DNA of 64,000 nucleotides from Capillimicrobium parvum (GTDB lineage Bacteria > Actinomycetota > Thermoleophilia > Solirubrobacterales > Solirubrobacteraceae): contig NZ_CP087164.1 of the NCBI RefSeq assembly GCF_021172045.1, forward strand, positions 4,402,001 to 4,466,000, given 5' to 3'. The translations under genes were made by a program, and so were the position numbers. The notes beneath the pieces are model-generated. The model was not told the origin of the DNA. It ran no database searches and saw only the letters and a program-made list of their open reading frames with translations. Shown here piece after piece: positions 17,437 to 27,871 of this stretch (position 1 is the first letter of the stretch; the number at the start of each line of letters is the position of its first letter).

Positions 17437-18663
17437 CTACAGGTAGTTCAGCGGGTTCACCACGGACCCGTTGATGCGCACCTCGAAGTGCAGGTGATCG
17501 CCGTAACAGCGGCCGGTGCACCCGACGTAGCCGATGACCTGCCCCTGCGTGACGCTCGCGCCCATCGAGGTGCCGAAGCGCGACTGGTGCGCGTAGCACG
17601 TCGACATCGACGACGTGTGCTGGACGCAGGTGAAGTTGCCGTAGCCGCCGGAGGCCGACTCGGGCTGCATCAGCACGACCTTGCCGGACGCGGCCGCGCG
17701 GATCGGCGTGCCGGACGGCACCCCGATGTCGATGCCCGGATGGCACGACTCCCAGGCCCGCGTCTCGCAGAACGGCGAGGTGATCGGGCCGTTGACCGGC
17801 CAGATCATGCCGCCGCTGCCGGGCTTGATCGGCCCGGCGGGCAGCGTGCCGGCGCTGCCGCCCGACGCGATGTCCGCCAGCCGGGCCTGGATCTTGGCCT
17901 GCTGGTCCTGCAGCTCGCCGAGGTCGTCCTCGAGCGCGTGGCGCTGCCCGCGCACGCTCGACAGGAGGTTCTGCCGGCCGGCGCGCGTGCGCTCGTAGCC
18001 GCTGCGCGCGCTGACGAGGTCGTTCTTGACGCCGGCGACCTCGTCGCGGCGCGTGAGGATCGTGGCCGCGACCTTCTGCTGGCGCGCCTCGAGCCCGGCG
18101 AGCCGCGTCGTCGTCGCCTGGGCATCCGCCTTCGCCGTCTTGACCGCGGCAACGATCCGGCGGTCGTTGTCGGAGATGCGCCGCAGGAACTCGCCGCGCT
18201 CGAGGAGGTCGGCGAAGCTGTTGGAGTCCAGGACGACGGTGATGAGGTCCGGGCGGTCGGCCTTGTAGAGCTCGACGAGCCGGGTTGCGAGGGCCCGCCG
18301 CGACACGACGAGCCGGCCCTTGAGGCGGGTGAGCCGCGCGCGCTCGTCGCGCAGCTGGTCCTGGACGCGCACGAGCTCGGAGCGCTTGGCATCGAGGTCG
18401 GTCTGGATCGCCTGCTGGCGGCGCTGGAGGCCCGTGATGCGGCCCTGGAGGTCGCGGATCCGGCTCGTGTAGCGCGAGATGTCGGTCGTCAGGACCCGCT
18501 CGGTGCCCTTCTTGGCGCCGATCTGGCGCTCCTTCTGGCGGATCTTCGACTGCACCTCGTTGAGCGACGGTCCGGAGGCGCCGCTGGAGACCAGCGGCGA
18601 CAGCGCCCACAGGCCGAACGGCAGGACGGCGAAGGCGCACAGGATCAGGAGGCGAAGTCTCAA
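17437..18663 (-). CDS. EnvC-like coiled-coil M23 (LytM) domain protein
   Basis: Secreted or anchored protein of 408 residues. An N-terminal hydrophobic signal segment is followed by a long heptad coiled coil (about residues 35-255) and a C-terminal M23 domain with HPGIDIGVPSGTP and HLHFEVR. His in HPGID, the Asp, and HLH supply a complete zinc set, so it may be an active endopeptidase rather than only an amidase activator. The architecture matches EnvC/NlpD-type division proteins that control peptidoglycan splitting. It lies 92 bases upstream of lgt on the same strand and is divergent from htpX. Likely acts at the septum or during cell-wall turnover. Confidence 0.88.
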   Translation of the reverse strand: MRLRLLILCAFAVLPFGLWALSPLVSSGASGPSLNEVQSKIRQKERQIGAKKGTERVLTTDISRYTSRIRDLQGRITGLQRRQQAIQTDLDAKRSELVRVQDQLRDERARLTRLKGRLVVSRRALATRLVELYKADRPDLITVVLDSNSFADLLERGEFLRRISDNDRRIVAAVKTAKADAQATTTRLAGLEARQQKVAATILTRRDEVAGVKNDLVSARSGYERTRAGRQNLLSSVRGQRHALEDDLGELQDQQAKIQARLADIASGGSAGTLPAGPIKPGSGGMIWPVNGPITSPFCETRAWESCHPGIDIGVPSGTPIRAAASGKVVLMQPESASGGYGNFTCVQHTSSMSTCYAHQSRFGTSMGASVTQGQVIGYVGCTGRCYGDHLHFEVRINGSVVNPLNYL

Positions 18664-18807
18664 GCGATGATGGAGGGTCGGGCGGACGCGCGGACGAACC
18701 GCGGAATCCCTGCTTGTAGCAAGGGCTCAACCCTCGCTCAAAGGTTGCAAGGCGCCGCCCACAGCGGCTTCAGGCTGTCTTAACAGAGTTAGGGCATCCT
18801 CTTGGCC

Positions 18808-19710
18808 ATGGCTGCACGCACCTCGTTCGGCAAGGACACCGGACTCCAGGCCCGGATGCTCTTCACCATGTTCCTGCTGGGCCTGGTGTACATCGCCCTG
18901 CTGGGCGTCCTCTTCGCCGCCGGCGCCGGCTTCGGCCTGCTGGTGGTCGTGGGCATCGGGCTGTTCCTCCTGCAGGTCTTCGCGTCGGACAAGATCGCCC
19001 TGGCGTCCATGGGCGCCAAGACCGTCACGGCGCAGCAGGCGCCGGAGTTCCACGCGCTCGTCGAGCGCCTCTGCGTCCAGGCGGACCTCCCCAAGCCGAA
19101 GATCGCCGTCATCGACACGCCGATGCCCAACGCGTTCGCCATGGGCCGCTCGCAGAAGGCCGCCACGGTCTGCGCGACGACCGGCATCATGGAGCTGCTC
19201 TCCCCCGCCGAGTTCGAGGGCGTCATCGCCCACGAGCTCTCCCACGTGGCCAACCGCGACGTCATGGTCATGACGATCGCCTCGTTCGGCGCGGCGCTGT
19301 CGTCGATGATCCTGCAGTTCGGCTTCCTCTTCGGCGGCGGCGGAGGCGACGACGACGACGGCCCGAGCGCGCTGGTCGTGTTCCTCGTCTCGATGATCGT
19401 GTACGTCGTCTCGTTCTTCCTCATGCAGGCGCTGTCGCGCTACCGGGAGTTCGCGGCCGACCGCGGCGCGGCGGTGCTCACCGGCCGGCCGAGCGCGCTG
19501 GCGTCGGCGCTGCTGAAGATCTCCGGCCAGATGCAGCGCGTCCCGCAGCGCGACCTGCGCGCCGCCTCCGAGATGAACGCCTTCTTCATCATCCCGGCGT
19601 CGGCGAAGGGCGCGATCGGCTCGCTGTTCGCGACGCACCCGCCGGTCGAGAAGCGGATCGAGCGCCTTCAGCGCCTGGAGCAGCAGCTGCAGGGTACGCT
19701 GGCCGCCTGA
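18808..19710 (+). CDS. htpX: HtpX zinc metalloprotease
   Basis: Membrane-bound M48B protease of 300 residues. Two membrane segments lie in the first 60 residues; the zinc motif is HELSH at 142-146, with the third ligand in the YREFAADRGA region. A GGGGGDDDDG loop precedes the third hydrophobic segment. HtpX degrades damaged membrane proteins. ATG 18808 is used; a TTG two codons upstream is also open. The stop codon overlaps the pspAB start by one base (TGATG), so the two are coupled. In actinobacteria HtpX is a known companion of the PspA system, which is encoded nearby. Confidence 0.93.
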   Translation: MAARTSFGKDTGLQARMLFTMFLLGLVYIALLGVLFAAGAGFGLLVVVGIGLFLLQVFASDKIALASMGAKTVTAQQAPEFHALVERLCVQADLPKPKIAVIDTPMPNAFAMGRSQKAATVCATTGIMELLSPAEFEGVIAHELSHVANRDVMVMTIASFGAALSSMILQFGFLFGGGGGDDDDGPSALVVFLVSMIVYVVSFFLMQALSRYREFAADRGAAVLTGRPSALASALLKISGQMQRVPQRDLRAASEMNAFFIIPASAKGAIGSLFATHPPVEKRIERLQRLEQQLQGTLAA

Positions 19711-20285
19711 TGGGGTTCCTCGACGCGCTGCTCGGGCGCCGCAAGGTCGCCGCGCCCGCCAAGCGCGATCGGCTCTTCGCCATGTCCACGGCGTACGTGA
19801 CGCTGGAGACGTCGCAGGACGTCCACACGCGCGGCATGGCGGCGATCGTCTTCCAGCCGCTCGCCACCGCCGACTTCAACGAGATCGTCAAGGAGATGGT
19901 CGAGGTCGTCAAGTCGACCGGCGAGGAGACCGGCACGACGGTCGACACGAGCGACGACTCGTTCGGCTACCGCTGGATGATCCTGCGCGACGCCGACGTC
20001 GAGGATCTCGTCGTCGGCATCAACGCCGTCTACGAGGCGCTGCAGATCGGCGGCTACGGCGACCGGGTGCTGGCGGCGGTGTTCGCCTTCGAGGACGGCC
20101 AGAAGCGGCCGCTGTACTTCATCTACAACGTCAAGCGCGGGTCCTGGTACCCGTTCGTCCCCGCCCCGGGGGACCAGCAGCGCTCGGTCGAGCGCGAGCT
20201 GCAGCTCAAGGCCCAGATCGGCAGCGAGCTGCCGATCGAGCCCGAGCTCGAGCGCTGGTTCCCGCTGTGGGGCGTCCCCATCTGA
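19710..20285 (+). CDS. pspAB: PspA-associated protein PspAB
   Basis: A 191-residue soluble protein matching the PspAB family found beside PspA/PspAA and HtpX in actinobacteria. The start MGFLDALLGRRKVAAPAKRD is typical; the body has TLETSQDVHTRGMAAIVFQP and ends in ERWFPLWGVPI, a conserved tail. No catalytic motif and no membrane segment. Its exact biochemical role is not known; association with the phage-shock membrane-stress response is established from gene neighbourhoods. Translationally coupled to htpX. Confidence 0.85.
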   Translation: MGFLDALLGRRKVAAPAKRDRLFAMSTAYVTLETSQDVHTRGMAAIVFQPLATADFNEIVKEMVEVVKSTGEETGTTVDTSDDSFGYRWMILRDADVEDLVVGINAVYEALQIGGYGDRVLAAVFAFEDGQKRPLYFIYNVKRGSWYPFVPAPGDQQRSVERELQLKAQIGSELPIEPELERWFPLWGVPI

Positions 20286-20299
20286 TCCGCGGCCGGCGG

Positions 20300-22276
20300 T
20301 CAGCCCGCCAGCGGGCCGCGGTAGTCCGTCGGGCGCCGCGTCGGGCAGTAGAGCCGCTCGGCGTACTCGAGCTGCGGCACGGCGCCGCCATGCACGAGGA
20401 ACAGCCCGTCGTCGCCATTGCGCAGGCACGCCGGCGGATAGTTCGGCAGCAGCCGGCGCTGGAAGAGGAGCACGCCGTCGGCCGGGTCGAGGCCGTCGAC
20501 GCGGTTGCCGGACGGCGCCCGCAGGCCCGCCCGCCGCGCGGCCGCCGCGATGGCGGCGCCGCCGCCGTAGGCCGGGTCGATCGCCAGCGACTCCTCGAAG
20601 GCGGCCTCCCGCACGCCCTGACGCCGAGCCACGGCCAGCACGCGCTCGAGCCGCGTGAGCCGGGCGCGTGTCGCCGCCGGGAGCGGATCGTCGGCGTGCG
20701 GCGCCTCGTACACACGGGGCGAGCGCGTCGGGCAGTACAGGTTCGTCGCCCGCTCGACCGGCGCGAGGTCCGGACCGCGCGTGACGAACACCCCGGTGCC
20801 GTCGGGCAGCACCGCGCACGGCCGCGCGCCGCCGGCGACGATCGGCTCACGGCGCACGTAGACGTCCTTCGGGCCCAGCGCGGCGGGGTCGTTGGCCGGG
20901 GCGACGTCGAGGCCGGCGATCGCGCCCAGCGCGGTCAGGCCCGGGGCGTTCCAGAAGCCCTCGGTGGCCGACAGCCGGCCGATCGCCAGCTGGCGGGCGC
21001 CCCGGGCGTGCGCGGCCTCCAGGATGGCCGGCACGTCGCCCCCGTCCTCGGGCTCGTCGACGAGGAACCCGCGGTCGGAGAACACCGTCAAGCGGCCGGT
21101 GAGGATGCGGTCGTCGCGCGCGCCGGGCAGCGACGCCCGCGCGACCCCGCCCACCCCGAACGATGTCGTGACGACGTTGATCACGGCGATCGCCACGACG
21201 ACCGTCGCGCCCACCGCCCGCCAGGTCGCCGACCGCACCGTCGCGATCCATCCGGTCCCCAGCACGGCCGCGTAGACGGTCGCCGGCAGCAGGTACCGGT
21301 TGTCGTTGTGGGCCAGCATCATGATCACGACGTAGGAGACGAGCAGGCCGCCGACGAGCTCGGGACCCAGGTCGTCGGACCGGCGGTCGCGGGCGTAGCG
21401 CACGACGGCGATCACGATCCCGACGACGACCAGCACCGTGAACGGCAGCAGCAGCTGGACGTTGATCGCGTTCCACAGATACCAGCCGAGGTCGCCGACC
21501 GTGAAGCGCCCCGGGTCGGCGCCGTAGTCGCCCAGGGACGTGCCGGCCACGTTGGAGCCGGCCGCGTAGCGCAGGACGTCCGAGGCGTGTCGCAGGTAGT
21601 ACGGCGCGCCGATCACGACCGCCGGTGCGGCGAACGCGATGAGCCCCCGCCAGTGGCGCCATCCGCCGCGCAGCAGCATCACCGCGATCAGGCCCGCCGG
21701 GAAGACGGCGAACGTCAGCTTCGTCAGCAGGCCGAAGCCGAACGCCACCCCCGCGCCCGCTGCCCAGCCCGTGCGCTCGAAGCGGCGGGAGGCGAGCAGC
21801 AGCCAGACCGCAAGCGCGACGAGCGCGGTCTGCGGCGGGTCGAGCATGTAGATGTGCAGCAGGCTCGTCAGCATCGGCGTGCCGAGCGCGAAGACCGCGG
21901 CGAGCGCGCCGGCCAGGCGGCTGCGGAACGCGATCGTCCCCGCCCCGTAGCAGCCGAGGGCGAGCATCGGCACGAACACGACGTTCTGCGACAGGACGAG
22001 CGTCATGACGCTGCGCCCGCCGATCACCGTCGCCGCCGCCCCGATGAGCTGGACGAGCGGCGCGTAGCCGAACGAGTTGTAGTAGTTGAACGGGAACAGG
22101 ACGTCCCCGCCCGCGATCTCGTTGCGGAACCAGAGCGCGGTGAACATGTGGCCGCCGGCGTCGAACGTCGGCACCCGGTGGTCCCGCGAGACCCACCACA
22201 CCGTCAGCGCCACGAACCCGACGACGGCCGCGACGACGAGGGCCTCGGGGCGCCCCAGGCGATCACGCAACGGCAT
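20300..22276 (-). CDS. Polytopic GT39/ArnT-like glycosyltransferase
   Basis: Membrane protein of 658 residues. Ten or more hydrophobic segments occupy residues 1-420, with the first extracytoplasmic loop carrying the acidic motif VPTFDAGGHMFTALWF expected of PMT/ArnT-like enzymes that use polyprenyl-phosphate sugars. A soluble C-terminal part (about 420-658) follows and contains two similar blocks ending in LYCPTR. ATG 22276 starts MPLRDRLGRP just before the first membrane helix; a longer frame extends into the divergent gene and is a shadow. Only 29 bases separate it from the divergent GT2 gene. It probably transfers a sugar to a surface acceptor. Confidence 0.78.
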   Translation of the reverse strand: MPLRDRLGRPEALVVAAVVGFVALTVWWVSRDHRVPTFDAGGHMFTALWFRNEIAGGDVLFPFNYYNSFGYAPLVQLIGAAATVIGGRSVMTLVLSQNVVFVPMLALGCYGAGTIAFRSRLAGALAAVFALGTPMLTSLLHIYMLDPPQTALVALAVWLLLASRRFERTGWAAGAGVAFGFGLLTKLTFAVFPAGLIAVMLLRGGWRHWRGLIAFAAPAVVIGAPYYLRHASDVLRYAAGSNVAGTSLGDYGADPGRFTVGDLGWYLWNAINVQLLLPFTVLVVVGIVIAVVRYARDRRSDDLGPELVGGLLVSYVVIMMLAHNDNRYLLPATVYAAVLGTGWIATVRSATWRAVGATVVVAIAVINVVTTSFGVGGVARASLPGARDDRILTGRLTVFSDRGFLVDEPEDGGDVPAILEAAHARGARQLAIGRLSATEGFWNAPGLTALGAIAGLDVAPANDPAALGPKDVYVRREPIVAGGARPCAVLPDGTGVFVTRGPDLAPVERATNLYCPTRSPRVYEAPHADDPLPAATRARLTRLERVLAVARRQGVREAAFEESLAIDPAYGGGAAIAAAARRAGLRAPSGNRVDGLDPADGVLLFQRRLLPNYPPACLRNGDDGLFLVHGGAVPQLEYAERLYCPTRRPTDYRGPLAG

Positions 22277-22305
22277 CCGGCCGCAGACTAGTCTCCTCGG
22301 CCCAG

Positions 22306-23070
22306 ATGCCGCCCGCCCTGTCCGTCGTGCTGCCCGCCTACAACGAGGAGGCGAACATCGAGCCCGTGGTCCGCCGCGCGCTCGAGGTGCTGCCCGACCT
22401 CGTCGACGACTTCGAGGTCCTCGTCGTCGACGACGGCAGCCGCGACGCGACCGTCGAACGCGCGCTGGCCGCGGCGCGCGGCGCACGGGACGGCCGCGTG
22501 CGCGTGCTGCGCCACGAGGTCAACCAGGGCTACGGCGCCGCCATCCGCTCCGGCTTCCGCCACGCGCGCGGCGCGCTCGTCTTCTACACCGACGCCGACA
22601 ACCAGTTCGACCTCGCCGAGCTCGAGTGGTTCCTGCCGATGATGGCCGACCACGACATGGTCATCGGCTTCCGCGTGTACCGCTACGACACGGTGCTGCG
22701 CTCGATCGTCTCGTGGTGCTACAACCGCCTCGTCGGCGTCCTGTTCCGCGTCCACGTGCGCGACGTCGACTGCGCCTACAAGCTGCTGCGCCGCGAGGTG
22801 CTCGAGAAGATCACGATCGAGTCCGACGACTTCTTCGTCGACACGGAGCTCGTCGCCAAGGCCCGGCGGTGGAACTTCCGCGTCGCCGAGAAGGGCGTGC
22901 GCCACTACCCGCGGACGGCGGGCGAGACGACCGTCCAGGCCAGCGACGTGCCGCGGACGCTGCGGACGATCGCGACGATGTGGCGGCGCATCCACGTGCC
23001 CTCCCGCGCCGACCGCGAGCTGATGGAGGCCGCCCGGAACCGCGACACCGCGGTCGAGCTGCAGCCCTAG
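22306..23070 (+). CDS. GT2 polyprenyl-phosphate glycosyltransferase (DPM1-like)
   Basis: A 254-residue GT-A fold enzyme. Motifs: SVVLPAYNEEANIEPVV at the N-terminus, VLVVDDGSRDAT, and the metal-binding YTDADNQFD. These are typical of enzymes that charge undecaprenyl (or dolichyl) phosphate with a sugar from a nucleotide donor. No membrane helices, so cytoplasmic face. It is the logical partner of the divergent polytopic GT39-like enzyme, which would use the lipid-linked sugar outside. The methyltransferase gene follows after 7 bases. Confidence 0.88.
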   Translation: MPPALSVVLPAYNEEANIEPVVRRALEVLPDLVDDFEVLVVDDGSRDATVERALAAARGARDGRVRVLRHEVNQGYGAAIRSGFRHARGALVFYTDADNQFDLAELEWFLPMMADHDMVIGFRVYRYDTVLRSIVSWCYNRLVGVLFRVHVRDVDCAYKLLRREVLEKITIESDDFFVDTELVAKARRWNFRVAEKGVRHYPRTAGETTVQASDVPRTLRTIATMWRRIHVPSRADRELMEAARNRDTAVELQP

Positions 23071-23077
23071 CGCTTCG

Positions 23078-23833
23078 ATGGAGGAGCGCTTCTACGCGGA
23101 GTACTTCGAGATCGAGGATCGGCACTGGTGGTTCCTGGGGCGTCGCCGGATCATCCTGTCGGAGCTCGCCCGGGCCCTGGCGCCGGCACCCGGCGGCACC
23201 CGGCGACTCCTCGACGTGGGGTGCGGCACCGGGACGATGGTCCGCGAGCTGGGCCGCTTCGGCCGGGCGGAGGGGCTCGACGCCGACCCGCAGGCCGTGG
23301 CGTTCTGCGCGAAGCGGGGGTTGACCTCGGTCGCGCGGCTCGAGGGCGGCCGGCTGCCGCACGAGGACGCGAGCCTCGACGTGGTCAGCGCGTTCGACGT
23401 GCTCGAGCACCTCGACGACGATGCGGGCATGGCGGCGGAGATGCGCCGCGTGCTGCGGCCCGGCGGCACCGCGATCGTCACGGTGCCGGCGTACCGCTGG
23501 ATGTGGGGGCCGCAGGACGAGATCAGCCACCACCGCCGCCGCTACGTGCGCCGCGAGCTCGTCGCGCTGCTGCGGGGTGCCGGCCTCGACGTGCGCCGCG
23601 CGACCTACTTCAACACGCTGCTGTTCGGCCCGATCGCCGCCGTCCGCGTGCTGCGCCGCGACCGGGGCGGCGGCGAGCTGCGCTCGGACTTCGAGCTCGG
23701 CTCGCCGCGCATGAACCGCCTGCTCGCGGGCGCGTTCGGCTCCGAGGAGGCACTCCTGCGCCGCGGGGTCAGCTTCCCGTTCGGTGTCTCGATCCTGGCG
23801 ATCGGCCAGGCCGGGGCGGATCAGGTGCGGTAG
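23078..23833 (+). CDS. Class I SAM-dependent methyltransferase
   Basis: A 251-residue Rossmann methyltransferase. Motif I is LLDVGCGTGTMVREL, motif II GLDAD, and VVSAFDVLEHLDDD is the UbiE/Methyltransf_11-type post-II region. The ISHHRRRYVRREL segment is common in methyltransferases of polysaccharide clusters. It follows the GT2 gene by 7 bases in the same direction and most likely methylates a sugar or lipid of that pathway. Its 3' end overlaps the convergent secreted-protein gene by 13 bases. Confidence 0.85.
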   Translation: MEERFYAEYFEIEDRHWWFLGRRRIILSELARALAPAPGGTRRLLDVGCGTGTMVRELGRFGRAEGLDADPQAVAFCAKRGLTSVARLEGGRLPHEDASLDVVSAFDVLEHLDDDAGMAAEMRRVLRPGGTAIVTVPAYRWMWGPQDEISHHRRRYVRRELVALLRGAGLDVRRATYFNTLLFGPIAAVRVLRRDRGGGELRSDFELGSPRMNRLLAGAFGSEEALLRRGVSFPFGVSILAIGQAGADQVR

Positions 23834-24714
23834 CCGGTCTTCGTCAGGAACGTGAGGAGCGAGCGGATGTATGCGCGCCCGTACTTCTCGGCGATGTCGC
23901 CGGGCCGCTTCTTCAGCTCGCCGCGGCGCAGCGCCGCGTTGAGCTCCCGGCGACACGCCGAGCCGCGATCGAGGAGGTACAGGTCGGCGCAGATCGCCGG
24001 CAGGATCCCCTTGATCGAGAAGCCCTCGTCGCGGTGCCGGCGCGCCTGGCGCAGGCTGCCGCGCAGCGCGCGCAGGTCGGCGCGGATGCGGTCGGGATAC
24101 TCGCGCGTGACGTTGACGAGCCCGAAGTCCTGGTAGCGCCAGATCTGCTCGGGCATCGCGGAGCACACGTAGGCGCAGAACGCGTAGGCGAACCGGTCGT
24201 CGAAGGTGACGAGCTCCTGCGCCGGCCCGCCGGGGAGGTCGGCGAGCGAGTAGCCGGGGTCGCCCCACAGCTGGTCGAGGCGCCGGTAGGCGTTCGTCGC
24301 GGCGTCCCAGCCGTAGATGACCGACACCGAGCAGCAGTGCGCGCCGCCGGTGAACAGGTCGACGATGACCTCCGGGTCGCCGTCGCCGGTGAGGTCCGCG
24401 ATCGTCAGCGACGAGACGGGCTCGCCACCGCCCTCGCTCAGGCCGCCGATCGGCGCGGCGCCCTTGCAGAACCGGCAGCCCGCGGCGACGTCGCCGCCGC
24501 TCGGCAGCGTGGCGGGTGCGCCGCCGCGCGTGACGGCAAGGCGCACGTTCGTCGCCTGGATGAAGCGCTTCAGCCGGTAGGTGAGGGTCGCGGTCACCGC
24601 ACCGGATGTCTTCGTCTCGGTGTGCGGGCCGGGTGTGCCCTGAGCCCCGGCGGTGGGAGCGCTCAGGGCCAGCAGCGCCGCGACGAGCGCGGCGGCGGCG
24701 ATGATTCGGGGCAT
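23821..24714 (-). CDS. Secreted protein coupled to the psp operon, FG-GAP-like repeat
   Basis: A 297-residue protein of unknown function with a clear Sec signal (MPRIIAAAALVAALLALSAP, cleavage after Ala-Gln region). A segment IADLTGDGDPEVIVDLFTGG has the DxDxDG calcium-loop pattern of FG-GAP/VCBS repeats. Seven or more cysteines (CRFC, CCS, CAYVCS, CAD, CRRE) suggest disulfides, consistent with export. The C-terminus is helical and basic. Its ATG lies only 4 bases after the pspAA stop, so it should be made from the pspA-pspAA mRNA. I do not recognise a named family. Confidence 0.7.
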   Translation of the reverse strand: MPRIIAAAALVAALLALSAPTAGAQGTPGPHTETKTSGAVTATLTYRLKRFIQATNVRLAVTRGGAPATLPSGGDVAAGCRFCKGAAPIGGLSEGGGEPVSSLTIADLTGDGDPEVIVDLFTGGAHCCSVSVIYGWDAATNAYRRLDQLWGDPGYSLADLPGGPAQELVTFDDRFAYAFCAYVCSAMPEQIWRYQDFGLVNVTREYPDRIRADLRALRGSLRQARRHRDEGFSIKGILPAICADLYLLDRGSACRRELNAALRRGELKKRPGDIAEKYGRAYIRSLLTFLTKTGYRT

Positions 24715-24718
24715 GGCC

Positions 24719-24997
24719 TCAGTCCGGCAGGAGGCCTTCGCCGGTGAAGTCTCGCTCGGCCTCGGCCAGCGTGAGATCCGGCGGCGGGATGATGAGGTCG
24801 GATTCGCGCAGGTCGTCGCCGTCGACGGCGTTCCCCTGCGAGCGCACGAACTCCAGGAGGGCCTGGAACGCGTGGTTGTAGTCGGCCTCGTCCTCGGCCT
24901 CGACCGCCGCGACGACGCGATTGTCGAGCTCGTTGAGCTCGTCGTTCGCGCCTTCGGGCAGCTCGTACTGGCCCTCCGTGGCGATGCGGACGATCAC
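24719..24997 (-). CDS. pspAA: PspA-associated protein PspAA
   Basis: A 92-residue acidic protein matching the PspAA family of actinobacterial psp loci. It starts MIVRIATEGQYELPEGA and ends with a short region LIIPPPDLTLAEAERDFTGE that is conserved in the family. No membrane segment. The start codon overlaps the pspA stop by four bases (ATGA), giving tight coupling. The function is thought to be support of PspA in membrane stress, based on conserved neighbourhoods. Confidence 0.85.
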   Translation of the reverse strand: MIVRIATEGQYELPEGANDELNELDNRVVAAVEAEDEADYNHAFQALLEFVRSQGNAVDGDDLRESDLIIPPPDLTLAEAERDFTGEGLLPD

Positions 24998-25746
24998 GCC
25001 GCGCCCCCCTCGATCTGCGGCTGCGAGCCGCCGCTGCCCTGGCCGAGCTCGGCCTTCATCTTCGCGAGGTCGTCGTCGACCGCGGACTGGCTGGTGAGCT
25101 CGTGCAGCTGCCGATCGATGTCGTCCTGGCCCTCGCCGAGCAGCGAGACGTCGCTGAACGTGCCGGCCGCCTCGAGCTCCTCGACCGCGGAGGCGCGCGC
25201 CTTCATGTCCTCGGTCTTGTCGAGCGCCCGCTGCATCGCGAGGCCGACGTCCGCCATCTCCTCGCCGACACCGGTGGCCGCGGACGAGATCTGCACCTGG
25301 GCCTCGGCCGCCGAGTACTGCGCCTTGACGACCTCCTTCTTGGTGCGGAACGCCTCGATCTTCGCGCGGAGCTTCGCCTCGGAGTCGATCAGCTTCTGCT
25401 GCTGGCCTTCGAGCTCGGCGACCTGCGTGTCGAGGTTCTGCAGCTCGGTCTGGGCGAGCTGCTTGCGCTCGAGCGCCGTGCGGGCGAGCTCCTCGTTGCC
25501 GGCGGACAGCGCCTGCCGGGCCTGCGTGTCGAGCTTGACCACGTTCTGCTGCAGGCGATCGGCTTGCATCTGCAGCCGCTTCTTGGAGGTGACGACCTCC
25601 GCGATGCCCTTCTTGACGTTCTGGAGGAGCTCGAGCTGCTTCTGATAGCTGTAGTCGAGCGTCTCGCCAGGATCCTCAGCTCTGTCGAGGAGCTTCGAGA
25701 TCTTCGCCTTGATGATGGTCGTGAAGCGGCCACTGGTGCCGGCCAT
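24994..25746 (-). CDS. pspA: PspA/IM30 (ESCRT-III-like) membrane-stress protein
   Basis: A 250-residue, almost wholly helical coiled-coil protein of the PspA/Vipp1 superfamily. It oligomerises on stressed membranes and limits proton leakage. The amphipathic N-terminal helix (residues 1-25) precedes AEDPGETLDYSYQKQLELL, a family hallmark, then long coiled coils to about residue 200. ATG 25746 is chosen because AGGAGG lies six bases upstream; the in-frame GTG one codon earlier is too close. First gene of the operon with pspAA and the secreted protein. The companion htpX-pspAB pair lies 4.4 kb away on the other strand. Confidence 0.93.
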   Translation of the reverse strand: MAGTSGRFTTIIKAKISKLLDRAEDPGETLDYSYQKQLELLQNVKKGIAEVVTSKKRLQMQADRLQQNVVKLDTQARQALSAGNEELARTALERKQLAQTELQNLDTQVAELEGQQQKLIDSEAKLRAKIEAFRTKKEVVKAQYSAAEAQVQISSAATGVGEEMADVGLAMQRALDKTEDMKARASAVEELEAAGTFSDVSLLGEGQDDIDRQLHELTSQSAVDDDLAKMKAELGQGSGGSQPQIEGGAA

Positions 25747-25825
25747 CACTTGCCTCCTGTCCGCCAGTCGGGATGTCTGGCGCCCAGCCTACCGACGCCG
25801 GCGCGACATGCGACTCAGGTGCGGC

Positions 25826-26425
25826 TCAGAAGCCGACGGGATGGCGGGCGACGAAGCCCTTGGTGCTGCGCAGGACGGGGCGCCAGCGCGGGCCCTTGGC
25901 GCCGGACGGATCGCCCGCGGCGCTCGTGTCGAGTCGCATGCCGGCGATCACGACGAACGCATGGCCCGGGTTCGTGTAGACGGTGACCCAGGACCCCGCG
26001 CCCGACTCGCCCCACTTCATGAAGCTGCCGGAGTCCAGCGGCGTGCCGTCCATCAGGTCGCCGCCGAGCAGCGCGTAGGAGACCGTGCCCGAGCAGTCGT
26101 AGCCGGTGTCCACGACACGGGCGTGGCCGCCACCGTACTTGTAGGGCTTGCCGACGATCTCGTTCGCGGACCAGATCGCCTGCTGGACCTCGGCCGGCGC
26201 GTCCGCGGGCGGGTAGGCCTTGCCGTCGATGATCCGGCCGCTGGGCATGACCGGGGTCGGCGCGGTCGCCTGATCGTACGAGGCCCCGCCGGCGGTGTCG
26301 CCGGCGACGGGCGCCGGAGCCGGCGCCGGAGTCGTGGCCTGGCGGGTAGCGGCCGAGGCGGGCACGGCGAACGCGGCCAAACACAGAACGGAAACGATCG
26401 ACGTCGTCAGGGCACGTGCCCGCAC
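25826..26425 (-). CDS. Secreted NlpC/P60-like peptidoglycan endopeptidase
   Basis: A 199-residue exported cysteine-peptidase-like protein. The signal peptide runs to about residue 26 (AVPASAA), then a Pro/Ala linker. The NlpC/P60 catalytic cysteine is in GYDCSGTVSYAL and the histidine in NPGHAFVVIAG; GKPYKYGGGH before the cysteine is the usual strand. It should cleave stem-peptide bonds in the wall. GTG 26425 has GAGG a few bases upstream. The 5' leader carries a ydaO-type riboswitch, so expression depends on c-di-AMP. It lies 79 bases upstream of pspA but has its own leader. Confidence 0.88.
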   Translation of the reverse strand: MRARALTTSIVSVLCLAAFAVPASAATRQATTPAPAPAPVAGDTAGGASYDQATAPTPVMPSGRIIDGKAYPPADAPAEVQQAIWSANEIVGKPYKYGGGHARVVDTGYDCSGTVSYALLGGDLMDGTPLDSGSFMKWGESGAGSWVTVYTNPGHAFVVIAGMRLDTSAAGDPSGAKGPRWRPVLRSTKGFVARHPVGF

Positions 26426-26577: not shown

Positions 26578-26671
26578 AACCTAGCACGTCACCAGGATTG
26601 GTGTCCCGCGGTTATGGGTACCGCCCGCCCGGCGTATGGGCGACCGGCCTTTCAATACCGTCATCGGCCGG

Positions 26672-27871
26672 ATGCGACCTCACTTGAGTGCCCTGCTGCT
26701 CGCCGGTGCCCTCGCCGCGGTCGCCTCCGGGTGCGGCAAGGAGACGACCGGGCCGCTGCCGCCGCCGGCGACGACGACGGTGACCGCGCCGGTCTCCGGC
26801 GTCGCGGGCGACGAGCCGCAGGCGGCGAGCGACCTGGGCTTCCCGACGTTCGCCACGAAGAACACGACGCGGGTGGGCGGCGCCGACGCCACGGCCGACG
26901 CCGCGGGCGTCGCGCAGGCCGTGTTCCCGTCGACCGGGCCGACTAGCCGGCCCGCCGCGGTGGTGCTTGCCGACTCCGAGAACTGGCAGGCCGCGCTGGC
27001 CGCCTCCGTGTTCATGGCGCGCCCGATCCGAGCGCCGCTGCTGCTCGCCCACGGCAGCGAGCTGCCGGACGCCACGCAGGCCGCGCTGACGCGCCTGGCC
27101 CCGGGCGGGTCCGGGGTCCTCGGCCGTGCGCAGGTGATCCGGGTGGGCGATGTCCCGGCGCCCTCGGGGCTGCGGGCGACGGCCGTCGCCGGCGACGACG
27201 CGTTCGATCTCGCCGCGGCGATCGACCGCGTGGCGACGAGCGCGCGGGGCGAGCCCGCGCCGGCCGTGATGATCGCGGGCGTCGACGACCCGGCGTACGC
27301 GATGCCGGCCGCGGCCTGGGCGGCGAAGGCGGGCGACCCGCTGCTGTTCGTCGAACGCGACCGGGTCCCGCAGGCGACGCTCAAGGCGCTGCGCCGCCAC
27401 GACCGGCCGGCGATCTACGTGGTCGGGCCGAGGTCGCAGGTCTCGGACGGCGTGCTGGGCGCGCTGCGCAAGGCGGGGTCCTCGGTGACGAGGATCGCGG
27501 GCGCGGACCCGGCGAAGAACGCGGTGGCCTTCGCGCGATTCTCGTCGGACGCGTTCGGTTGGGGGATCGTCGATCCCGGGCACGGCCTGGTCGTCGCCGA
27601 TCCGCGGCAGCCGCTGGCCGCCGCGGCCGCCTCGCCGCTTTCCTCCAGCGGGACCTACGGGCCGCTGCTGCTGACCGACGACGCGGGCGGCCTGCCCGAG
27701 CCGCTCGTCCAGCTCCTGCTCGACATCCAGCCCGGCTACGAGGCCGACCCGGTCCGCGGCGTCTACAATCACGCCTGGCTGATCGGGGACGAGCAGGCCG
27801 TCACACTTGACGCCCAGTCCCGCATCGACGCCCTTCTCGAGATCTCCCCCGTCCGCGACGAAAGCCCATGA
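26672..27871 (+). CDS. Lipoprotein with cell-wall-binding repeat 2 (CWB2) domains
   Basis: A 399-residue exported protein. The lipobox is ASGC after a hydrophobic signal (SALLLAGALAAVASGC). Two or three CWB2-like modules follow: TTRVGGADATADAAGVAQAVFP with SENWQAALAASVFM, then PAIYVVGPRSQVSDGVL and the SVTRIAGADPAKNAVAFA segment. CWB2 repeats bind secondary wall polymers in clostridia and actinobacteria. ATG 26672 begins directly at the signal peptide; the in-frame ATG 26636 adds 12 residues without a better ribosome site. It is divergent from the NlpC/P60 gene, and both would act in the wall. Stop overlaps the next gene's start. Confidence 0.82.
   Translation: MRPHLSALLLAGALAAVASGCGKETTGPLPPPATTTVTAPVSGVAGDEPQAASDLGFPTFATKNTTRVGGADATADAAGVAQAVFPSTGPTSRPAAVVLADSENWQAALAASVFMARPIRAPLLLAHGSELPDATQAALTRLAPGGSGVLGRAQVIRVGDVPAPSGLRATAVAGDDAFDLAAAIDRVATSARGEPAPAVMIAGVDDPAYAMPAAAWAAKAGDPLLFVERDRVPQATLKALRRHDRPAIYVVGPRSQVSDGVLGALRKAGSSVTRIAGADPAKNAVAFARFSSDAFGWGIVDPGHGLVVADPRQPLAAAAASPLSSSGTYGPLLLTDDAGGLPEPLVQLLLDIQPGYEADPVRGVYNHAWLIGDEQAVTLDAQSRIDALLEISPVRDESP

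What the first reader, a model, noticed from the sequence alone, without database searches (positions are those of the whole stretch)
23821..25746. Secreted FG-GAP-like protein coupled to pspA-pspAA
A signal-peptide protein of unknown function starts 4 bases after pspAA, so one mRNA makes the cytoplasmic PspA and PspAA plus an exported, disulfide-rich protein with a DxDxDG calcium loop. PspA systems act on the inner membrane face; an outside component could be a sensor or wall-side partner not listed among known Psp associates.
Basis: inference. Interest (0 to 1): 0.62.

Follow-up and report, generated by a model that had tools for sequence, protein, structure and literature searches.

The report
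Secreted inhibitor-like protein in Psp operon
Behind two genes that protect the cell membrane, this bacterium carries a gene for an exported protein whose predicted shape resembles proteins that block cell-wall-cutting enzymes; the pairing is found only in one genus, so the link is a lead and not a rule.

Summary
A 297-aa signal-peptide protein (24714-23821, minus) starts 4 nt after pspAA, itself overlapping pspA. It recurs at this spot in 4 of 4 held genomes of the genus, gap 26 nt or less, but in none of the 29 other surveyed genomes holding both genes. Those neighbourhoods show why: pspAA and the known partners pspAB-M48 converge on a slot whose length varies from 10 nt to 7.7 kb, so this gene is one occupant of a variable slot. 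In two related genera its homologue sits behind topA.

The protein belongs to a family that Pfam, NCBIfam and PHROGs do not name, common in cyanobacteria, with a nearly invariant GGAHCC motif. Two confident models have the peptidoglycan-hydrolase inhibitors XAC2610 and PliI as first Foldseek hits; calcium loop and GGAHCC loop have the spacing of XAC2610's calcium and inhibitory loops. I propose a secreted wall-hydrolase inhibitor recruited to a Psp operon: fold moderately supported, function inferred, 'sensor' unsupported. A secreted NlpC/P60-like protein upstream of pspA is the commoner wall-side neighbour: 32 of 70.

The parts
23821..24714 (-). Secreted GGAHCC-family protein, 297 aa (the finding)
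   Evidence: homologues in 41 of 201 genomes of the order
24640..24714 (-). Sec-type signal peptide, residues 1-25 (by inspection)
   Evidence: Sequence; no signal-peptide program was run
24370..24396 (-). Predicted Ca2+ loop, residues 107-115, DLTGDGDPE
   Evidence: Sequence; same length as XAC2610 Ca loop 151-159
24331..24348 (-). GGAHCC motif, residues 123-128, at the hairpin between strands 115-123 and 128-137
   Evidence: HCC in 30 of 30 and GGAHCC in 27 of 30 homologues of the order read out; model
23824..24096 (-). C-terminal helical part, residues 207-297
   Evidence: Model
24719..24997 (-). pspAA
   Evidence: PF22743 E 2.1e-31
24994..25749 (-). pspA
   Evidence: PF04012 E 6.1e-30
25826..26425 (-). 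Secreted NlpC/P60-like protein upstream of pspA
   Evidence: NLPC_P60 E 0.005, below cut-off; Cys111 and His155 in 37 of 37 aligned relatives; upstream of pspA in 32 of 70 neighbourhoods with room
19710..20285 (+). pspAB, convergent known Psp partner
   Evidence: PF22742 E 5.7e-67
18802..19710 (+). M48 metallopeptidase, known partner of pspAB
   Evidence: PF01435 E 2.7e-34; mSystems 2024 PMC11237479
20286..24718 (.). Variable slot between pspAA and pspAB: this gene plus methyltransferase, GT2 and PMT_2-like membrane protein

Best explanation
The gene encodes an exported, probably calcium-stabilised protein of an unnamed family whose main domain has the incomplete beta-propeller fold of bacterial peptidoglycan-hydrolase inhibitors (PliI-Ah, XAC2610). 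SHOWN: gene order, its conservation in one genus, absence of the pairing elsewhere in the survey, the family and its motif. SUPPORTED BY MODELS: the fold. INFERRED: the GGAHCC hairpin tip, with His126 where XAC2610 has Tyr170, is pushed into the active site of a wall hydrolase and blocks it; C127 and C128 form a vicinal disulfide that stiffens the tip. In the ancestor of this genus the gene entered the variable slot behind pspAA and became the last gene of the nlpC/P60-like, pspA, pspAA unit, so that membrane stress would make PspA/PspAA inside and a wall-hydrolase brake outside. A target to test first is the NlpC/P60-like protein encoded just upstream of pspA.
For: Model of the window protein: pLDDT 91.4; Foldseek first hit 4qtq (XAC2610) prob 0.99, E 3.7e-3, PliI chains 3od9 prob 0.96/0.90; VIA-align first PliI-Ah Z 9.1, rmsd 3.5, 111 of 122 residues, 4qtq Z 7.8 over 167. 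Second model, a cyanobacterial member: PliI-Ah ranks 1-4, prob 1.00, best E 2.8e-3, about 120 of 122 residues. Published: XAC2610 Ca loop 151-159, inhibitory loop 165-173, Y170 needed for inhibition; loop between second and third strands of the shared sheet in XAC2610, PliI and Tsi1 (PMC10933484, passages and section 11). Here the Ca loop is 107-115 and the same spacing puts the second loop at 121-129 with His126 at the Y170 place, on the hairpin between two strands. Cys parity: 24 of 46 A3 members have CC as the only mature cysteines, 21 have an even surplus, 1 an odd one. Junctions of 26 nt or less in 4 of 4; the gene is constant while other slot genes differ among the four.
Against: No Foldseek hit reaches E 0.001; no sequence link to PliI or XAC2610; VIA-align gives partial matches of ordinary propellers the same Z, and 9.1 is little above the tool's stated usual best. 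His, not Tyr or Ser, at the loop. Residue equivalence rests on spacing and end points; no residue alignment to 4qtq was seen. Two alphaproteobacterial relatives are fused to a trypsin-like protease, which fits a binding role as well. The Psp link exists in one genus only. Co-directional ORFs within 100 nt of pspAA occur in 19 of 76 neighbourhoods and fall in 12 unrelated clusters. One of the four genus copies (G021) is broken by a frame change.
Confidence: 0.35

Rival explanations
1. Passenger in a hot slot: whatever the protein does, its place behind pspAA is an accident of insertion in a variable region and it has no role in the Psp response.
For: pspAA-pspAB gap runs from 10 to 7743 nt; 42 of 62 gaps exceed 300 nt. 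Occupants include a DDE transposase, glycosyltransferases, a sulfatase-like protein, an SDR-like reductase and others, mostly named by eye. The pairing is absent outside the genus. Synteny inside the genus is high for the whole block. Homologues behind topA in six g3/g7 genomes form another conserved home.
Against: Tight junction in all four genomes while other slot genes differ among them. Not all occupants are unrelated: in genus g15 the slot holds a histidine kinase, a response regulator and a Toastrack protein, a known kind of Psp-linked set.
Confidence: 0.4
2. Carbohydrate- or protein-binding (targeting) module: the domain anchors proteins to wall or matrix; the vicinal-disulfide hairpin is a ligand site, not a plug.
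For: Fused to Trypsin_2 in Sinorhizobium NGR234 and Methylosinus, with a P-domain or PPC domain in other relatives; six g3/g7 homologues lie 3' of topA, which overlaps a CvpA-Trypsin_2 protease gene in the window; propeller-like fold.
Against: Foldseek's best hits in both models are hydrolase inhibitors, not lectins.
Confidence: 0.2
3. External sensor or partner of PspA.
For: Gene order; extracellular parts are known in Lia-type systems (LiaX, recalled; a LiaX paper was seen only in the listing).
Against: No evident transmembrane segment after the signal peptide in the model, so no direct path to a cytoplasmic PspA; the family occurs in 8 of 41 genomes without a PspAA match and widely in cyanobacteria away from pspA.
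Confidence: 0.05

Closest known systems
XAC2610 (X-Tfi, PDB 4QTQ), immunity protein against the GH19 effector XAC2609
   Same: Foldseek first hit; exported; Ca loop followed at the same spacing by a conserved hairpin loop; aligned up to residue 252 of the model, so into the C-terminal helices
   Different: No detectable sequence similarity; His instead of Tyr170; no effector gene seen beside it; ours has no lipobox (by eye)
PliI-Ah, periplasmic i-type lysozyme inhibitor (PF16743, PDB 3OD9/4PJ2)
   Same: Fold over nearly all of PliI in two models
   Different: No match to PF16743 in the A3 scan or at this gene; ours has an added helical part
Tsi1 (immunity protein of Tse1)
   Same: Third inhibitor of the same topology in PMC10933484
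   Different: Not in the rows listed; not compared directly
PspA-PspAA-PspAB-M48 system (PMC11237479)
   Same: All four genes are in the window, pspAA and pspAB convergent
   Different: Fifth, exported member between pspAA and pspAB, only in this genus; FG-GAP and VCBS are not mentioned in that paper's main text

Membership tests
PspA-PspAA dyad / PspAB-M48 system | PspA, PspAA, PspAB and M48 domains encoded together | tested here: met
   convergent pspAB in 62 of 76 neighbourhoods, M48 behind it in 59
FG-GAP / VCBS repeat proteins | Match over Pfam cut-off, repeated blades | tested here: not met
   16.9 and 12.9 bits against cut-offs 26.9 and 22.1, one stretch each
PliI (PF16743) | Sequence match to PF16743 | tested here: not met
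   Not among the families matched by any of 46 A3 members at E<=0.01; own-genome search has no match over cut-off and none at this gene
PliI | PliI fold | tested here: met
   Two predicted models, (Z 9.1-9.3; tied with propellers)
PliI / XAC2610 / Tsi1 inhibitors | Inhibits a peptidoglycan hydrolase | not testable with these tools
   Needs protein
XAC2610 family | Ca loop plus conserved Tyr in the following loop | tested here: inconclusive
   Ca loop and loop spacing match, but His replaces Tyr, and no residue alignment was obtained
XAC2610 family | Sequence homology | tested here: inconclusive
   No PDB sequence hit for A3 or A5 up to E 10; absence at this sensitivity only

The most novel reading that the evidence does not exclude
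A stress operon that brackets PspA-PspAA with an exported NlpC/P60-like wall hydrolase and its exported inhibitor, the inhibitor being the first recognised member of a large unnamed family (GGAHCC) that uses a vicinal-disulfide hairpin to plug wall hydrolases, in actinobacteria and cyanobacteria alike.
Probability: 0.13. Interest if true: 0.75.

Novelty: new variant of a known kind. Interest (0 to 1): 0.45.

Why it matters
Psp systems are studied as membrane guardians; a wall-side brake made from the same mRNA would couple membrane stress to wall hydrolysis. Independently, the GGAHCC family is widespread in filamentous cyanobacteria, was matched by no Pfam, NCBIfam or PHROGs model that covers it in the scans run here, and now has a testable function: block of a peptidoglycan hydrolase through an HCC hairpin.

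Tried and rejected
FG-GAP beta-propeller membership: below cut-off. Search for recurrence beside pspAA in the order and the named relatives: no support outside the genus; in the phylum only 3 of 396 genomes had the gene at all. Sequence bridge to 4qtq or PliI by profiles A1, A3, A5 and by one cyanobacterial member: none. Promoter/terminator scan: one terminator-like site, inside pspA on the other strand. Conserved neighbours of the family in cyanobacteria: a recurrent cluster exists, but none of its genes is an evident wall hydrolase by eye; no family scan of them was made. Local move from topA to pspAA: PSP-linked and topA-linked homologues are each one clade, and a joint clade is not rejected (p-AU 0.143), nor shown. 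Tsi1 did not appear in the rows listed; that does not exclude it. The C-terminal helices were not predicted alone, so nothing is claimed about their fold. A paper search for the motif string found 0 papers; a search for phage shock with peptidoglycan hydrolase and inhibitor listed 8 papers, seen as listing only.

Bias to know: alignments A3-A5 come from a scan seeded partly with [YF]TGGAHCC, so motif invariance there is partly built in. The unseeded set gives HCC in 30 of 30 loci and GGAHCC in 27 of 30 (two AGAHCC, one GGVHCC); a further tandem copy in G123 reads GGADCC. A1 used 20 of those 30 loci plus the window protein. A3 used 45 of the 80 loci plus the window protein; A4 37 plus the window protein; A5 28 plus the window. 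The tree used 30 loci, the topA-linked copy of G139 and 15 named relatives. Neighbourhoods: 76 of 121 genomes with PspAA were read.

Full report
OBSERVATION. On the minus strand the window has pspA (25749-24994), pspAA (24997-24719) and, 4 nt later, an ATG-initiated 297-aa frame (24714-23821). PspA and PspAA are certain (PF04012 6e-30, PF22743 2e-31). The third protein begins with a Sec-type signal peptide (by eye). Its FG-GAP resemblance is one DxTxDGxxE loop and stays below Pfam's cut-offs; NCBIfam has no match.

Further along, convergent to pspAA, lie pspAB (19710-20285, PF22742 6e-67) and an M48 peptidase (18802-19710), the partner set described for PspAA in mSystems 2024 (PMC11237479; passages seen). 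Upstream of pspA on the same strand is a secreted NlpC/P60-like protein (25826-26425; weak Pfam match). The space between pspAA and pspAB in the window holds the finding plus a methyltransferase, a GT2 and a PMT_2-like protein.

RECURRENCE. In 201 genomes of the order, the protein has a homologue in 41 and PspAA a match in 121; comparing the two tables, 33 hold both and 8 (G066, G121, G151, G167, G171, G185, G008, G106) hold the protein without a PspAA match. The two genes are adjacent in G000, G021, G152 and G156, which are all 4 genomes held for the genus. In the other 29 they are on different contigs (25, many of them drafts) or 20-27 kb apart on one (G165, G113, G145, G139). In 20 of those 29 the DNA behind pspAA was read directly, in some only as far as the contig went, and no homologue was there; over all 76 neighbourhoods read the homologue is present in 4, the four of the genus. 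Of 80 named relatives (56 cyanobacteria by record title), only two, both of this genus, carry pspA/pspAA in the stretch fetched (flanks up to 10 kb, many shorter; tblastn with the window's proteins). In the phylum 3 of 396 genomes have the family.

THE SLOT. I read 76 of the 121 pspAA neighbourhoods. pspAB follows convergently in 62; the gap is 300 nt or less in 20 and up to 7743 nt in 42; an M48 gene stands behind pspAB in 59. Gap contents differ by genus: in genus g15 a histidine kinase, a response regulator and a Toastrack (DUF4097) protein (Pfam run on one genome's set), elsewhere glycosyltransferases, a DDE transposase, a sulfatase-like protein and others (most named by eye). A co-directional ORF begins within 100 nt of pspAA in 19 of 76, in 12 unrelated clusters (my ORF picker is crude, so a few of these may not be genes, and it missed the broken G021 copy). 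So tight adjacency behind pspAA is common and by itself weak evidence of function; but the slot also houses a known kind of Psp-linked set.

INSIDE THE GENUS. Junctions are 4 nt (G000), 16 nt (G021), 26 nt (G156) and a TGATG overlap (G152). The proteins are 54-62% identical to the window's and form one clade (100/99). The rest of the block is similarly syntenic in the genus, which lowers the weight of this. The other slot genes differ: three in G000, one in G152, none evident in G156, and in G021 only the broken copy. The G021 copy is interrupted by a frame change near codon 122; whether that is real or an assembly fault cannot be told here.

A SECOND HOME. In G165, G141, G113, G145, G139 and G151 (genera g3, g7) the homologue lies just 3' of topA; in the four of these whose longer stretch was read, topA follows a CvpA-Trypsin_2 protease gene, the same order as in the window. 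These six form their own clade (99/95); the data do not reject a joint clade with the pspAA-linked four (p-AU 0.143).

WHAT THE PROTEIN IS. Thirty homologues of the order were read out: HCC is present in 30 of 30, GGAHCC in 27 of 30. No Pfam or NCBIfam family covers it, nor PHROGs for the three members tried. A plasmid search adds Alphaproteobacteria (8 records); a five-way alignment with three of them keeps G124-C128 invariant, and two of these are fused to Trypsin_2. In 24 of 46 aligned members the CC pair is the only cysteine pair of the mature part, and surplus cysteines are even in number in 21 of the other 22, which argues for a C127-C128 vicinal disulfide (prediction; a metal site with H126 is an alternative).

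FOLD. Two AlphaFold2 models, of the window protein (pLDDT 91.4) and of a cyanobacterial member (91.6; 36% identical), were compared with the PDB. Foldseek: first hit 4qtq, XAC2610 (prob 0.99, E 3.7e-3) for the first; PliI-Ah at ranks 1-4 (prob 1.00, E 2.8e-3 to 2.9e-2) for the second. VIA-align: PliI-Ah first with Z 9.1 (111 residues, rmsd 3.5) for the first; for the second PliI-Ah Z 9.3 among propellers of Z up to 9.9. No hit passes E 0.001. The two models share most of their alignment and are not fully independent. [quoted passage not shown] XAC2610's Ca loop is 151-159 and its inhibitory loop 165-173 with Tyr170; the same spacing from our 107-115 gives 121-129, i.e. the GGAHCC hairpin, with His126 at the Tyr170 place. 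This is an argument from spacing and from the aligned end points, not from a seen superposition.

HOW IT MOST LIKELY WORKS. Exported, calcium-stabilised, plugging a wall hydrolase with the GGAHCC hairpin; in this genus made with PspA-PspAA. In the window the nearest candidate targets are the NlpC/P60-like protein (25826-26425), whose Cys111 and His155 are kept in 37 of 37 aligned relatives, and the M23 peptidase (17437-18663). That Tse1, the target of the related inhibitor Tsi1, is NlpC/P60-like is recalled. The hydrolase-inhibitor pairing is a hypothesis: the NlpC/P60-like gene is upstream of pspA in 32 of 70 neighbourhoods with room, mostly without our gene beside it.

VERDICT. The most useful outcome is a function hypothesis for an unnamed, widespread secreted family.

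Noticed in passing
window 25826-26425 (-): A secreted NlpC/P60-like protein stands directly upstream of pspA in 32 of 70 neighbourhoods of the order, with Cys111 and His155 in 37 of 37 aligned sequences. It is a better candidate for a wall-side Psp partner than the finding; PspA-NlpC/P60 fusions are mentioned in PMC11237479.
   Followed up: partly
window 20286-24718 and the same interval in 61 other genomes: The interval between convergent pspAA and pspAB is a variable slot, 10 to 7743 nt; in genus g15 it holds a histidine kinase, response regulator and Toastrack protein.
   Followed up: partly
L228 3108-4970 and L230 3129-5015: Sinorhizobium NGR234 and Methylosinus proteins fuse the GGAHCC domain to a C-terminal Trypsin_2 protease.
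   Followed up: partly
L118 2124-3182, L124 6216-7394: GGAHCC proteins with a proprotein-convertase P-domain and with a PPC domain.
   Followed up: no
L028 (G123:C22:10285-11778): Tandem duplication of the GGAHCC domain in one frame; the first copy reads GGADCC.
   Followed up: no
window 26636-27871 (+): CWB2 cell-wall-binding protein divergent from the nlpC-pspA unit and kept beside it in many neighbourhoods.
   Followed up: no
L085-L160, cyanobacterial loci: In Nostocales-like genomes the family has its own conserved neighbourhood (35 loci share a membrane protein upstream, 27 an MgtC-like protein downstream; names by eye).
   Followed up: no
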